A DNA stretch of 64,000 nucleotides from Natrinema salaciae (lineage in GTDB: Archaea > Halobacteriota > Halobacteria > Halobacteriales > Natrialbaceae). Position numbers and translations under genes: made by a program. The notes below the pieces were generated by a model that saw nothing but the letters and a program-made list of their open reading frames with translations, did no database searches and was not told the origin of the DNA. Shown piece after piece: positions 57,900 through 61,883 of the stretch; the stretch's first letter is position 1; every line of letters starts with the position of its first letter. Location of the stretch: the NCBI RefSeq assembly GCF_900110865.1, contig NZ_FOFD01000007.1:124001-188000 (forward strand). Reading direction: 5' to 3'.

Positions 57900-58030
57900 G
57901 CGTTGGCCGTCTTCGAGGTAGTATCCCGCTCGAATCTTGAAGCTCGATGACCGCCCGAACGTACCGGATCCGGTCGGGAATCGACGGGTGCATGTGGTGG
58001 AACGTCGCCTACTACGGATGGAACGGGTTC
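57900..58030 (-). pseudogene. C-terminal remnant of an M48 peptidase
   Basis: On the minus strand this reads NPFHP, two stop codons (58012-58014 and 58009-58011), then ATFHHMHPSIPDRIRYVRAV. The intact version at 60597-61883 has NPFPHPLYATFRDTHPPIP and DRIRYIREI at the same place. The frame then runs without a stop into the deaminase gene. The DNA differs from the other copy at many positions, so it is an old paralogous remnant rather than a fresh duplication. It lies directly after the stop of the HTTM gene. Confidence 0.7.
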
Positions 58031-58054: not shown

Positions 58055-58882
58055 TTACGAGAGGACGCCAACGAATCGATTCGCATATATTATCGCCGGA
58101 TACGTCGCGACGAACGGAAGGATGAATCCGTTTAGGCCCATGAAAATCGCCGCTCCAACGTGGAACGAGAACCCGAGGAGCAGGAACGCGAATACGTATT
58201 CAGACGGTGCAAGGAGAACCGATGGAAACAGACATTCGAACGCGATCGTCGCCCAACAACCGACAGTACCGAGTTGTGGGTAGTCCTGCAACCGCTCGTA
58301 CACCCACTGGTGGCCGTAGATAGACGTTCCGAAAATGCCGGTCAGAGCGCCCCCATCTCGCCAGATATCGGAACTCGCTTTGCTCACTCCCGCGACGAGA
58401 TAGGAGAGGATGGCCTGTGCAGCGATGAACAGGATGGCGAGATCCCGTTCGATGCTTCCCTCGGGAAACAGACTCGCGATAAACAGCGCGCTGAAAACGA
58501 TGAACGACATCTGGAACCCGCCTTCGAGTCCGTACGGATGCCGAAACGAAATGGCGAACGTCGTGGCGACGATGCCAGCCAACAAAATGGGCGACTGCGT
58601 GCCAGAGAGTGCGAGGATCCCTGCGAACGCGCCCAGGAGTAATCTGCTGGCTAGCAGGCCCAGAAACCGAGGGTACGGAAATATCGCGTCCGATACGTGC
58701 GAAACGAACGGGTACGAAAATACCGGTCGCTGTTTCGAGACCTTCCAACTCAGAATGTCGTCGTCCTGCAGTCGGTCCCGAGCCGCGAGATACTCGGCCG
58801 ACGACAGGACGACGTACCCACTGGCGAGGACAGTGATCGCTCGCAGAACCGTTTCGCTAGTTGAGAACAGCGCCGTCGTCAT
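58055..58882 (-). CDS. SdpB-like HTTM membrane protein
   Basis: A 275-residue integral membrane protein with about eight helices (VLRAITVLASGYVVLSSAEY; LLLGAFAGILALSG; FIVFSALFIASLFPEG; FAFLLLGFSFHVGAAIFMGL). The late segment FHVGAAIFMGLNGFILPF is typical of the HTTM superfamily, related to vitamin K-dependent carboxylase and to SdpB. Bacterial SdpB works with SdpA in making the SDP toxin. The start overlaps the stop of the upstream gene (ATGA), so the three genes are coupled. GC content is visibly lower than in the flanks, suggesting transfer. Confidence 0.7.
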   Translation of the reverse strand: MTTALFSTSETVLRAITVLASGYVVLSSAEYLAARDRLQDDDILSWKVSKQRPVFSYPFVSHVSDAIFPYPRFLGLLASRLLLGAFAGILALSGTQSPILLAGIVATTFAISFRHPYGLEGGFQMSFIVFSALFIASLFPEGSIERDLAILFIAAQAILSYLVAGVSKASSDIWRDGGALTGIFGTSIYGHQWVYERLQDYPQLGTVGCWATIAFECLFPSVLLAPSEYVFAFLLLGFSFHVGAAIFMGLNGFILPFVATYPAIIYANRFVGVLS

Positions 58883-59445
58883 ACTGTATGGTAGTCGGAC
58901 GTGAATATCGGCTCTAGTGTCCCGTCGACACCGGCTTCTCGCATGATCAGAAACTGCGTCGCCACGCTCATTTCGGACCGCTGGACGGATGACACGTAGT
59001 TCAGAAGTACGATGTACGCCGTCGTGAGTTTGATCGCGTCGGATCGGACGGGCGTCAGTTCGCGTTCGTCGGATGATTCCGCGTCGTACTCGCTTTCGGT
59101 CTCGGGTTGGGACCGCAGTAGCTCCTGTGTCAAATCGAACAGCGCCTTCTTGCCGTGCTTGTCCGGGTGCCAGATGGGGGCTGTTACGTCTCGCGGCTCG
59201 TGGAATCTAGAAACCTCCTGCCACGGTCCGACTCCGCCGTCGACGAACGTATCGCGGTAGAGGAGATGATAGTCCGCTACACCCGGGTCCGGTGCGAAAA
59301 AGTTCCACCGGGGAATGAAATGGTGGACTTCACGCCCGCCGAGCTTTCGAAACCCCCACGGAGTGGAGTTGATCACCGTGGCGACGAGCCACACGCTCAA
59401 CACAGTCCCGAGAGCGATCACGGTCCAGCTACCAGTCGCGGTCAT
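58879..59445 (-). CDS. SdpA-like membrane-anchored protein
   Basis: A 188-residue protein with one N-terminal membrane helix (residues 7-24) and an exposed remainder. Its main signature is IPRWNFFAPDPGVADYHLLY (residues 44-63), which resembles the aromatic-FF-x-P-x-P motif of SdpA-type proteins and of HTTM partners. The later part is charged. The stop overlaps the HTTM start by four bases (ATGA), and the start is one base from the stop of the upstream gene. The protein would sit next to the HTTM partner in the membrane. The SdpA link is a motif-level inference. Confidence 0.6.
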   Translation of the reverse strand: MTATGSWTVIALGTVLSVWLVATVINSTPWGFRKLGGREVHHFIPRWNFFAPDPGVADYHLLYRDTFVDGGVGPWQEVSRFHEPRDVTAPIWHPDKHGKKALFDLTQELLRSQPETESEYDAESSDERELTPVRSDAIKLTTAYIVLLNYVSSVQRSEMSVATQFLIMREAGVDGTLEPIFTSDYHTV

Positions 59446-59446
59446 C

Positions 59447-60370
59447 TCACGCGAACCCGTGCTCGTGCAGGACCTCCCGGCGCATGTCCAGTAACTCACC
59501 GACCGCGGCCCTGCTCCCGAGTTGGTTGACCGTATCGTCGGGCAGACTGACTTCCCGCAAATCCTCGTGGACCCCCGGCGACGTGGACGTAGCAACGGCT
59601 ACCGCGACCACCACGGCCGCTACCAGAACGGCGTCACTCACCGGTCCGTTAGGGAGGATGTTTGCCTCGTCGACGTCCGACGGGATGGTCTCCATCGCTC
59701 GCCGTTCGATATCACTCATTTCCGGCGGCGATGCGACGACCAGGTAATCGTAGAACCCGTTCGGTGGGAACGGACCGTCTGGACCGTCAGGCCAGGGGAA
59801 ATCGTCCGGCCACGGCGGCGATGGTGGACAGTCGGGTCCGCACGGACACTCCCGAATGGTGAACTCGTCCGGATCGAGTTCACCACCGGTGTACGGAAAC
59901 GTCATCGCCCCCAGCGGGAGCTCTCTGAGTGCGAGGTTTCTGCCGAGTTCACGCGACCCGTAACTGAAATCGAAGATCGCCGGTGCCTCGAGTGCCTTCT
60001 CGACACCCTCGTGCGGAGTCGGTAACTCCCGGGACAAGAGCTCCTCGTTTTCGAGTAGCATCTCGCCGACCTCCGAGAACGCGTCGAGGTCGTCCTTGAC
60101 GATCGCGGTTTCGATGTCGTCGATCAGATCGGTTCCGGTCGCGCCCCAAAAGAGCATGACGGTCCCCTGGGGTGGCCTGAAGGGATTGCCGTCAAGCGCG
60201 TCTTCATCCGGGTCGAAGGTAACCACTGGGGGGGTTTTGTGATGTGTTTCTCGGCGAGCCTTCGCACTCTGAATGGCTTCGAACGGATCGTCTTCTTCCT
60301 CCGGTATTCGAGTCGCTCGAGAGAGCTGTTCACCCACGTTTTCATCGAAGTCGATATCTCCTAATTGCAT
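59447..60370 (-). CDS. Unknown protein, first gene of the SdpAB-like cassette
   Basis: A 307-residue protein of no recognised family. It is acidic, with LFWGATGTDLIDDIETAI near 73-90. A Cys/Pro-rich patch (CPCGPDCPPSPPWPDDFPWP, 175-194) precedes PDGPFPPNGFYDYLVVASPP. A hydrophobic Ala/Val-only segment follows at 243-261 (SDAVLVAAVVVAVAVATS), and the C-terminus is charged. It has no classical signal peptide. In bacterial sdpABC operons the third gene is the toxin precursor, so this protein could be the precursor or its carrier. ATG 60370 is favoured over the GTG at 60385 by the TATA position (60401-60410). Confidence 0.65.
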   Translation of the reverse strand: MQLGDIDFDENVGEQLSRATRIPEEEDDPFEAIQSAKARRETHHKTPPVVTFDPDEDALDGNPFRPPQGTVMLFWGATGTDLIDDIETAIVKDDLDAFSEVGEMLLENEELLSRELPTPHEGVEKALEAPAIFDFSYGSRELGRNLALRELPLGAMTFPYTGGELDPDEFTIRECPCGPDCPPSPPWPDDFPWPDGPDGPFPPNGFYDYLVVASPPEMSDIERRAMETIPSDVDEANILPNGPVSDAVLVAAVVVAVAVATSTSPGVHEDLREVSLPDDTVNQLGSRAAVGELLDMRREVLHEHGFA

Positions 60371-60410: not shown

Positions 60411-60596
60411 GTCTATTGGAAATTATAAATAGGTTTGTTATTGCTTGTCTCCTGTTCCGAATACGACCCCTGAGGTTGACCCGTCGATCGATCGCCCACA
60501 GTGCCGGATGACGACCGCGATCGGACAGCGATCTCTACCAACTACTCGGTGCAGACGACCGGTGCGGGGACGCGGTTCTCGAAATCATCGGGACGG

Positions 60597-61883
60597 TCAA
60601 TCAGCGCCGCTCGCGCCCGGAGGCGATGTCTCGCTCGAGCCATCGGTCCCGCTGATCTCACGGATGTACCGAATCCGGTCGGGAATCGGCGGGTGCGTGT
60701 CGCGGAAGGTGGCGTACAACGGATGCGGGAAGGGGTTCGCGAGGTGTTCGCTCGTGAGCCGGCAGAGCGCGTCGACCAGCGGCTCGCCGTCCGCCATCAC
60801 GGCGGTTGCGAAGGTGTCGGCCTCGCGCTCGTGGGCCAGCGAAAGTCTGTTCTCGAGCGGGCTGGTGGGTATGGCTACCGGCTGGAGCCAGAGCGCACCC
60901 ATTACGAGGCCGACGTAGGTGGTTTCCGGCAGTGCGAACAGCTCGTAGAGCCACGGTGCCTCGAGCAGGTACCAGAGGATGGTGAGCATCGCTCCGATTC
61001 GCACAAGCCCGGCGGTGAATCCCTTCCAGACGTGGCGTTTTTCCAGTGGGCGAGCTCGTGTGCGAGGACTGCCTCGATCTCGGCGAGCCCCATCTGGTCG
61101 ACGAGCGTATCGAACAGGACTATCCGTTTGGTCCGGCCGAAGCCGACGAAGTAGGCGTTGGAGTGGGAGGACCGCTTGCTCGCGTCCATGACGGAGACGT
61201 GTCGCAGGTGAAGCCGGCGCGCTCGAAGACGCGCTCGACGGCAGCCCGCAACTTGCCGGCGTCGACGGGCTCGAAGTCGTTGAACAGCGGCGCAATCACC
61301 CGCGGGTAGAGCACGAGCATCGCGAGCGAAACGGCCGTGAACAGGGCGGTCGCCGCCAGCGGTCAGTAAGTCGGCAGGCGAACGACGACCCAGAGGACGG
61401 CGGCGAGAACGGCCGTGAAGACCGCCGCGAGAACCGTCCCGAGCAGGAGGTCCGTGACGAACAGCCCGGTGACGCCTCGTTGAAGTCGAATCGCTCCTCG
61501 ATCACGAACGTCTCGTAGGCGTCGAAGGGGACCGAGACGAGCCGGATTCCGACAACCGCCGCGACGAAAAAGGCCGCCCCCGTCTCGATCGGCCCGTATC
61601 CAAGCCCCTCGAGCCACTCGACGGCCGTCGCCAGCGCGCCCGAGTAGAGGACCGCCAGTACGAGCGCCAGAATCACCCAGGGCTGTCCCTGCGAGAGTAT
61701 CGTCGTCGCGCGTTGGTAGTCGACTACCCGGTCGGTGTCCTCGAGATCGAGCCGTTCGGCGACCCAGTCGGATTCCCGCTCGAGCGCCCGTCTCCCGTGG
61801 CGAACGTTGAGCACGGACAGGACGGTGAAGAACGCGGTTGTCCCGGCGAGCACGGCGAGAAAGAGCACGTGATACGCGAGCAT
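60597..61883 (-). pseudogene. Ste24-like M48 metallopeptidase, disrupted
   Basis: A membrane-embedded zinc protease related to CAAX endoprotease Ste24. The pieces in order are: FVAAVVGIRLVSVPFDAYET...RFDFNEA (frame 1, to about 61480); [20 protein letters not shown]...RLPTY, then TGA at 61363-61365; [20 protein letters not shown]...[28 protein letters not shown]...HELAHWK (HExxH type); and [20 protein letters not shown] to the end. Joining these needs three single-base frame changes (near 61480, 61200 and 61040) and reading through one stop. Either the gene is dead or the sequence has errors. The first is favoured since the lesions are several. The C-terminus is shared with the remnant at 57900. 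Confidence 0.85.

What the first reader, a model, noticed from the sequence alone, without database searches (positions are those of the whole stretch)
58055..60370. Three-gene SdpAB-like cassette: candidate archaeal secreted-toxin or peptide system
Three genes are packed on one strand (1-base gap and a 4-base ATGA overlap). Seen: an unknown 307-residue protein with a CPCGPDC patch and a 19-residue Ala/Val-only segment, a membrane-anchored protein with a WNFFAPDPG motif, and an HTTM-type multispanning protein. Established: bacterial sdpABC makes an antimicrobial peptide, with SdpB an HTTM-like membrane protein. Inference: this may be an archaeal counterpart, in which the first protein is the precursor or carrier of a peptide. 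The block is visibly lower in GC and has its own AT-rich promoter.
Basis: partly seen in the sequence, partly recalled or inferred. Interest (0 to 1): 0.82.

Follow-up and report, generated by a model that had tools for sequence, protein, structure and literature searches.

The report
Archaeal cassette maturing a hydrophobic peptide
Three packed genes in a salt-loving archaeon look like a small peptide-making kit (a precursor protein, a membrane enzyme with the fold and key lysine of the human vitamin K carboxylase, and its partner), and similar kits occur in distant bacteria, which suggests how a little-understood enzyme family may work.

Summary
The three packed genes are real: P1 307 aa, P2 188 aa, P3 275 aa, in a low-GC block. 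The same P1-P2-P3 order occurs in other haloarchaea and in Pseudoduganella, Nocardia, Rhodococcus and a Cyclobacteriaceae genome. Of 9 P1-positive genomes among 391 Halobacteria, 8 also have a P2 cluster. P1 ends in a module shared with short proteins (mostly 86-124 aa) beside P2/P3: a leader-like helix, a hydrophobic core ending 32-48 residues before the C-terminus (20 of 24) and a tail like [AS]SxxELLxxR. P3 is an HTTM protein: its model matches human vitamin K-dependent carboxylase (Z 16.4, 232 residues), and invariant Lys168 aligns with that enzyme's base Lys218. Relatives of P2 and P3 sit in linaridin-type clusters on Streptomyces plasmids and beside YcaO/SagB genes on a Haloplanus plasmid. 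So this is most likely a ribosomal-peptide maturation cassette. The SdpAB reading is half right: P3 is a distant SdpB relative; P2 does not match SdpA; P1 shows no secretion signal. Substrate, cleavage, chemistry and toxicity are untested. Best guess: P2-P3 mature P1's hydrophobic core at the membrane.

The parts
59447..60370 (-). P1, 307 aa, proposed precursor: N-terminal carrier domain plus C-terminal precursor module
   Evidence: ORF; relatives in haloarchaea and bacteria linked to P2/P3; no Pfam or NCBIfam match
59681..59719 (-). leader-like stretch of P1, residues 218-230 (SxxERxA..xP)
   Evidence: coordinates; conserved in alignments
59579..59641 (-). hydrophobic core of P1, residues 244-264
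   Evidence: highest 19-residue hydropathy of P1
59468..59509 (-). tail of P1, residues 288-301 (AAVGELLDMRREVL)
   Evidence: conserved in alignments
59822..59848 (-). CPCGPDCPP patch of P1, residues 175-183, start of a Pro-rich insertion
   Evidence: coordinates; the insertion is absent from the nine aligned relatives
58879..59445 (-). P2, 188 aa, membrane-anchored partner, DUF5819-like by its relatives
   Evidence: ORF; 6 of 22 relatives hit PF19136, 0 of 22 hit SdpA
59281..59307 (-). WNFFAPDPG motif of P2, residues 47-55
   Evidence: sequence; columns conserved in 22 relatives
58055..58882 (-). P3, 275 aa, HTTM membrane protein with the carboxylase fold, remote SdpB relative
58379..58381 (-). 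codon of Lys168 of P3, aligned with base Lys218 of GGCX
   Evidence: Lys in 21 of 21 and 14 of 14 rows
58160..58162 (-). codon of invariant His241 of P3
   Evidence: His in 21 of 21 and 14 of 14 rows
60422..60429 (-). TATA-like element TTTATAAT in the AT-rich stretch before P1
   Evidence: sequence; hexamer also listed by the consensus scan, which is no evidence of function
57915..58020 (-). diverged partial copy of the M48 3' end on the far side of the cassette
   Evidence: direct repeat, 74% over 106 bases; 80% over 98 bases to the M48 3' end of G060
60620..60725 (-). native M48 3' end, other copy of the repeat
   Evidence: M48 domain in the C-terminal ORF

Best explanation
The cassette makes a ribosomally encoded hydrophobic peptide. 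P1 is the precursor: an N-terminal carrier domain of about 210 residues joined to a precursor module (leader-like helix, hydrophobic core, recognition tail). P3 is a membrane enzyme with the fold and base lysine of the vitamin K-dependent carboxylase. P2 is its membrane-anchored partner. Together they recognise the flanking helices and mature the hydrophobic core at the membrane, as SdpA and SdpB are required to do for SDP and as HTTM proteins are assumed to do for linaridins. The product is most likely a small membrane-active peptide used against related cells. Shown here: gene linkage, the shared precursor module, the predicted P3 fold and the conserved lysine. Inferred: that P1 is the substrate, that the core is released, which chemistry occurs, and what the product does.
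For: In 391 Halobacteria genomes 8 of 9 P1-positive ones also have a strong P2 hit. Precursors of very different length share leader and tail while the middle varies. P3 model pLDDT 89.8; the 15 best VIA rows are all GGCX, Z 13.1-16.4, next row Z 9.1; the first 12 Foldseek rows are GGCX. Lys168 aligns with GGCX Lys218, the residue that starts its reaction (PMC9146348, passages). Relatives of P2 and P3 lie in Streptomyces plasmid clusters with hydrolase, methyltransferase, ABC transporter and small peptides, 9 of whose 11 peptides have PxxxTP (read by eye); PxxxTP, HTTM and hydrolase are linaridin features (PMC9927463, passages). A Haloplanus plasmid has the P2-P3 pair beside YcaO, SagB-type and TOMM leader-binding genes. 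SdpA and SdpB are required to process SdpC (PMC6818787, passages).
Against: No family model matches window P1 or P2. P1's model is poor (pLDDT 64.9) and finds no fold, so an enzymatic or structural role for P1 is not excluded. The cassette has no transporter and no recognised immunity or protease gene, whereas several haloarchaeal relatives carry an ABC transporter. Foldseek has no match at E<=0.001; its best GGCX row is 4.1e-3 at 13% identity, and the sequence profile alone gives E 0.07. One review credits dehydration in cypemycin to kinases and lyases (PMC10880069, passages), which speaks against a dehydratase role of the HTTM protein. The hydrophobic core does not hold in L057, L055, L111 and L059; the tail is not terminal in L055 and weak in L059 and L051c. 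Not every P2/P3 locus showed a precursor: none with the tail was found by me in L060, L061, L063 or L070.
Confidence: 0.68

Rival explanations
1. A plain SDP-type toxin system: P2 and P3 only help to cut and export a hydrophobic toxin from P1; no residue is chemically changed and the carboxylase-like lysine is a relic or structural.
For: P3 is a remote SdpB relative; [quoted passage not shown]
Against: P2 is not SdpA by profile; P1 has no visible signal sequence; Lys168 and His241 are invariant in 21 of 21 and 14 of 14 rows; relatives sit among peptide-modifying enzymes.
Confidence: 0.3
2. P2-P3 modify P1 as a whole (for instance carboxylation of acidic residues), and P1 is a secreted or surface protein with its own function rather than the source of a small peptide.
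For: P3 has the carboxylase fold and base; P1 is large and acidic, with a conserved N-terminal domain in ten aligned proteins.
Against: Short proteins with only the C-terminal module take P1's place beside P2/P3 in Natronorubrum, Halorussus, Haloferax, Amycolatopsis and Bacteroidota; P1 shows no signal sequence.
Confidence: 0.15
3. The peptide is a signal or serves the producer itself (motility, differentiation) rather than killing competitors; the maturation steps are as in the main reading.
For: No immunity gene or transporter was recognised in the window cassette; archaeal lanthipeptides also affect motility of their host (PMC12144867, abstract and passages).
Against: Hydrophobic cores and patchy distribution (8 of 125 family genomes for P3) fit an antagonistic peptide; linaridins and SDP are antimicrobial (PMC9927463 and PMC6818787, passages).
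Confidence: 0.2
4. The cassette is a decaying foreign insertion without function in this strain.
For: Low GC, bracketed by diverged repeats, next to an M48 gene split by frame changes.
Against: All three ORFs are intact, tightly packed and keep the residues conserved in relatives.
Confidence: 0.08

Closest known systems
Linaridin biosynthesis (HTTM protein, alpha/beta hydrolase, LinL; cypemycin, grisemycin, corynaridin)
   Same: HTTM membrane protein beside a second small conserved protein and a hydrophobic ribosomal precursor; relatives of P2 and P3 occur in such clusters on Streptomyces plasmids
   Different: No alpha/beta hydrolase, methyltransferase or transporter in the cassette and no PxxxTP in P1; a large carrier domain and a C-terminal tail are added. 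That P2 corresponds to LinL is inferred from position only
SdpABC of Bacillus subtilis
   Same: P3 is a remote SdpB relative; a hydrophobic stretch lies inside a larger precursor
   Different: P2 does not match SdpA; P1 has no visible signal sequence; no SdpI or SdpR recognised beside it
Vitamin K-dependent gamma-carboxylase (GGCX), HTTM domain
   Same: P3 model matches residues 58-313; the base lysine is kept
   Different: P3 is 275 aa and lacks the rest of GGCX; the residue nearest by offset to GGCX His160 varies; no carboxylation is shown
DUF5819 (PF19136)
   Same: 6 of 22 P2 proteins match, best 1.4e-5
   Different: Window P2 itself has no match; the two matches seen with scores are below the gathering score

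Membership tests
SDP system (SdpABC) | SdpB homolog over the TIGR04033 cut-off | tested here: inconclusive
   Window P3 20.8 bits against 178.4; 19 of 23 aligned P3 proteins match at E<=0.01: remote homology, not membership by the curated score
SDP system (SdpABC) | SdpA homolog (TIGR04034) | tested here: not met
   0 of 22 P2 proteins at E<=1; no match in the window's genome or in 18 other genomes, while the B. subtilis control rings
SDP system (SdpABC) | Precursor with N-terminal secretion signal and C-terminal hydrophobic domain | tested here: not met
   Hydrophobic stretch near the C-terminus present, but no hydrophobic N-terminus in P1 by reading and by the hydropathy peak; no signal-peptide program was run; definition from PMC6818787 passages
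SDP system (SdpABC) | Immunity protein SdpI and repressor SdpR nearby | not tested
   Neighbours scanned are M48, deaminase and a PQQ-type protein; no SdpI search of the window or genome was made
Linaridin | PxxxTP cleavage motif in the precursor | tested here: not met
   Absent from window P1 by reading; present in 9 of 11 small peptides of four Streptomyces plasmid clusters; definition from PMC9927463
Linaridin | HTTM protein related to those of linaridin clusters | tested here: met
   tblastn and profile matches between P3 and the HTTM proteins of those clusters
Linaridin | LinL | not testable with these tools
   No LinL match appeared in Pfam or NCBIfam for P2 proteins; a P2-type protein follows HTTM/hydrolase in S. 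globosus, S. californicus and S. atratus and, by position only, in two more
Linaridin | Alpha/beta hydrolase beside or fused to HTTM | tested here: not met
   None in the window cassette; present in the plasmid clusters
Vitamin K-dependent carboxylase family | HTTM membrane fold | tested here: met
   VIA Z 16.4, rmsd 4.0, 232 residues; first 15 rows all GGCX, next Z 9.1
Vitamin K-dependent carboxylase family | Base lysine (GGCX Lys218) | tested here: met
   Aligned with Lys168 by profile; Lys in 21 of 21 and 14 of 14 rows
Vitamin K-dependent carboxylase family | His160 equivalent | tested here: inconclusive
   Residue 115 of P3, nearest by offset, varies; no residue-level structural alignment was available
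Vitamin K-dependent carboxylase family | Carboxylation of Glu with reduced vitamin K | not testable with these tools
   Needs biochemistry
DUF5819 (PF19136) | Score over the gathering threshold | tested here: not met
   Window P2 no match at E<=1; genome search best E 0.98 elsewhere; 6 of 22 relatives match at E<=0.01

The most novel reading that the evidence does not exclude
SDP, linaridins and this archaeal-bacterial family share one maturation core: an HTTM enzyme that uses a reduced quinone and a base lysine, as the vitamin K carboxylase does, to make a strong base that abstracts protons from the backbone of a membrane-bound hydrophobic peptide (epimerisation, elimination or carboxylation), guided by a partner of the P2/LinL/SdpA kind. 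Menaquinol of the haloarchaeal membrane would be the cofactor.
Probability: 0.3. Interest if true: 0.92.

Novelty: new variant of a known kind. Interest (0 to 1): 0.72.

Why it matters
[quoted passage not shown] The carboxylase fold and the invariant lysine give both a concrete, testable hypothesis, and the archaeal cassette is a minimal three-gene version in which to test it. It would also add a peptide family to the short list known from archaea, and it gives a precursor signature (leader, hydrophobic core, ELLxxR tail) with which to look for more.

Tried and rejected
P2 as SdpA: rejected as a family claim. Viral origin: no phage record matches window P3 at E<=0.01 and no viral contig was confirmed; among predicted viral structures one match reaches E<=0.001, a Yasminevirus protein named desaturase, and the second row is a Harvfovirus HTTM protein, not followed up. 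P1 in plasmids: no tblastn match with the Pseudoduganella protein, although the profile found P1 on a Rhodococcus plasmid. P1 fold: low-confidence model, no match; the P1 profile has only weak PDB hits (best E 0.038) and two weak single-member Pfam hits. PADLOC: no match for five proteins. A genome-contig scan with P2 alone found no relative.

Recent transfer of the whole cassette from bacteria: the P1 tree puts window P1 with bacterial P1 (80/92) and the P2 tree puts window P2 and Pseudoduganella with the haloarchaea (87/86), both weak. The first P3 tree put window P3 with bacteria (83/93) but held one row read in the wrong frame (L111). The rebuilt tree leaves out L111 and, by my choice, L062-L065 (21 of 26 rows); there window P3 is the first branch of a haloarchaeal clade (99/96). 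A recent transfer of P3 is therefore not supported.

Simple insertion at the M48 3' end: not settled. The cassette is bracketed by two diverged copies of that end, and G060 has M48 and the deaminase without the cassette. I fetched 8 of the 26 other same-genus genomes with a deaminase match: six have SDR and deaminase with no M48 found, and in one only the deaminase was found. No integrase was looked for, and assembly errors in M48 are not excluded.

Literature: ten searches listed no paper that by title or abstract start describes this cassette or ties HTTM peptide clusters to carboxylase chemistry; DUF5819 does not occur in the 40 listed of 81 papers; one search found none. Two papers on archaeal peptides hold no 'Sdp', and the second no 'HTTM'. 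The 2019 survey of archaeal peptides and toxins by Makarova and others, and a 2020 linaridin survey, are not held, so prior description is not excluded.
Full report
What is there. Three genes on the minus strand, 60370 to 58055, are packed with one base between the first two and a 4-base ATGA overlap between the last two. I call them P1 (307 aa), P2 (188 aa) and P3 (275 aa). GC of the block is 0.593 against 0.665 elsewhere, and the 100 bases upstream are 36% GC. The claimed 19-residue Ala/Val-only segment is a 19-residue hydrophobic stretch with an 11-residue Ala/Val run, and the CPCGPDC patch lies in an insertion not found in the nine aligned relatives. The window lies in G000.

Linkage. In 125 genomes of the family (G000 included) P3 relatives occur in 8, P2 in 6 and P1 in 3; G000 has one hit for each. 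In a class sample of 391, 15 genomes have a P2 hit, 11 of them strong (E below 1e-15). P1 hits 9 genomes, 8 of which are among those 11. The ninth, G265, is weak, has two stops and no P2 hit. Fisher's test gives about 1e-13, without correction for relatedness.

Beyond archaea. A scan of named genomes with the P3 alignment returned 17 loci, 14 of them bacterial. Pseudoduganella umbonata carries P1-P2-P3 in the same order; its P1 is the best match to window P1 (E 2e-28; best haloarchaeal one 1.5e-16). It is rare: P1 in 1 of 294 genomes around Pseudoduganella, that one being Pseudoduganella itself; P2-type hits in 10 of 251 around Nocardia and 8 of 241 around the Cyclobacteriaceae, several weak.

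The precursor signature. Large P1 proteins and short proteins (86-124 aa, one of 196 aa) in P2/P3 clusters share a C-terminal module. I collected 24 such proteins from 20 loci, choosing them by profile match or by position and tail, so the set is not blind. In 20 of 24 the most hydrophobic 19 residues end 32-48 residues before the C-terminus; the exceptions are L057, L055, L111 and L059. The tail resembles [AS]SxxELLxxR, with L055 not terminal and L059 and L051c weak. A loose pattern for it hits 24 of 3953 mechanical ORFs of 60 aa or more in these loci, precursors and duplicate loci included. The middles differ freely while the ends are kept, as expected of a precursor read by its ends. PMC6818787 (passages) says that SdpC homologs likewise have unique C-terminal hydrophobic domains. 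I found no tail-bearing precursor in L060, L061, L063 or L070.

The membrane enzyme. Window P3 hits TIGR04033 (SdpB) at 2.5e-4; 19 of 23 aligned P3 proteins do, and 4 of 23 hit HTTM. All seven PDB sequences found at E<=1 by the P3 profile are vitamin K-dependent gamma-carboxylase, at E 0.073-0.085, not significant alone. The AlphaFold model (17 sequences, pLDDT 89.8) is the stronger evidence: VIA gives Z 16.4 over 232 residues to GGCX 58-313, the first 15 rows are all GGCX, the next is Z 9.1. Foldseek ranks GGCX in its first 12 rows but with a best E of only 4.1e-3. The profile alignment pairs Lys168 with the second Lys of AGVKKLD, residue 218 when the offset of the 758-residue chain is used; a K217A/K218A mutant is among the listed structures. 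PMC9146348 (passages) names Lys218 as the residue that initiates the reaction and His160 as essential. Lys168, Gln156, Tyr161, Trp174 and His241 are invariant in 21 of 21 rows and 14 of 14 in a wider set with linaridin-type and fused proteins. Position 115, nearest to His160 by offset, varies. So fold and base are kept; carboxylase chemistry is not implied.

The partner. P2 relatives share a W/F-rich FFxPxP motif. 6 of 22 hit DUF5819, none SdpA. In four haloarchaeal loci (L071-L074) a single protein of 532-556 aa holds an HTTM domain followed by a P2-like stretch, so the two parts go together elsewhere.

The linaridin link. Window P3 hits 17 plasmid records. I opened 11 of the 17 hits; two stretches have no annotation. 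S. globosus, S. californicus, S. sp. GBA 94-10 and S. flavofungini show small peptides, HTTM with alpha/beta hydrolase (fused in three), a further small protein, a methyltransferase and an ABC transporter; that further protein matches the P2 profile in the first two and is judged by position in the others. Of their 11 small peptides 9 carry PxxxTP, such as PVMATP (read by eye), the linaridin cleavage motif given in PMC9927463. Hits to the NCBI linaridin models are weak and below cut-off (best E 0.0034 and 0.011). PMC9927463 (passages) says that HTTM and hydrolase proteins are assumed to take part in maturation, mechanism unclear; PMC10373908 (passages) reports grmL as a possible peptide epimerase. 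On the other side, PMC10880069 (passages) credits cypemycin dehydration to kinases and lyases. In S. atratus HTTM, hydrolase and P2-type genes follow lantibiotic dehydratase and LanC genes, and on a Haloplanus plasmid the P2-P3 pair sits beside YcaO, SagB-type and TOMM leader-binding genes on the other strand. These settings make peptide modification the likeliest job of P2-P3. That P2 is LinL is inferred from position only.

How it most likely works. P1 is made in the cytoplasm; its carrier domain and end helices bring the hydrophobic core to the P2-P3 pair in the membrane; P3 acts on the core, using its lysine and possibly a quinol; the core is released. Shown: linkage, module, predicted fold, lysine. 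Inferred: the rest. Export and self-protection are open: the window trio has no transporter, whereas G027, G028, G015 and G307 have ABC genes beside it (the ATPase is an 83-aa remnant in G027 and G028).

Origin. The cassette lies between an M48 gene that is 90% identical in DNA to an intact 430-aa gene of G060 but split over several frames, and a second partial copy of the M48 3' end. Window P1 groups with bacterial P1 (80/92); window P3 is the deepest branch of the haloarchaeal P3 clade in the corrected tree (99/96), unlike in the first tree, which held a misread row. This would fit an old exchange between domains and swapping of precursors, with weak support.

Verdict. A peptide-maturation cassette, with a precursor family that none of the libraries I searched describes, and a variant of the SDP/linaridin kind. 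The strongest new claim is the carboxylase-type active site of P3; the strongest caution is that no product has been seen.

Noticed in passing
60597-61883 and 57915-58020: The M48 peptidase gene is split over several frames while G060 keeps an intact 430-aa relative; a diverged copy of its 3' end lies on the far side of the cassette.
   Followed up: partly
L162:2591-10820 (NZ_CP098516.1): Haloplanus sp. GDY1 plasmid: P2-P3 pair next to amidase, M28 peptidase, methyltransferase, SagB/ThcOx, YcaO and TOMM leader-binding genes, a candidate archaeal hybrid peptide cluster.
   Followed up: partly
L165:1-7964 (NZ_CP108284.1): Streptomyces atratus plasmid: HTTM, hydrolase and P2-type genes directly after lantibiotic dehydratase and LanC genes.
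   Followed up: no
L071:7636-9240, L071:3180-4850, L072:7548-9146, L073:8641-10281, L074:8182-9846: Haloarchaeal proteins of 532-556 aa fuse an HTTM domain to a P2-like stretch; role unknown.
   Followed up: partly
L030:6208-7269, L029:12295-13359, L052:9856-10893: Similar-looking 345-354 aa proteins (Methyltransf_24 domain tested only for L030) recur in clusters with short precursors.
   Followed up: no
L024:8097-8348: In G027 and G028 the ABC ATPase beside the trio is reduced to an 83-aa remnant while the permease ORF is full length.
   Followed up: no
L029:6896-7579: G066 has a second P2 copy with no P3 hit next to it, beside an ABC transporter.
   Followed up: no
predicted viral structures: The P3 fold also matches a Yasminevirus protein named desaturase (E 9.8e-4) and a Harvfovirus HTTM protein (E 0.14).
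   Followed up: no
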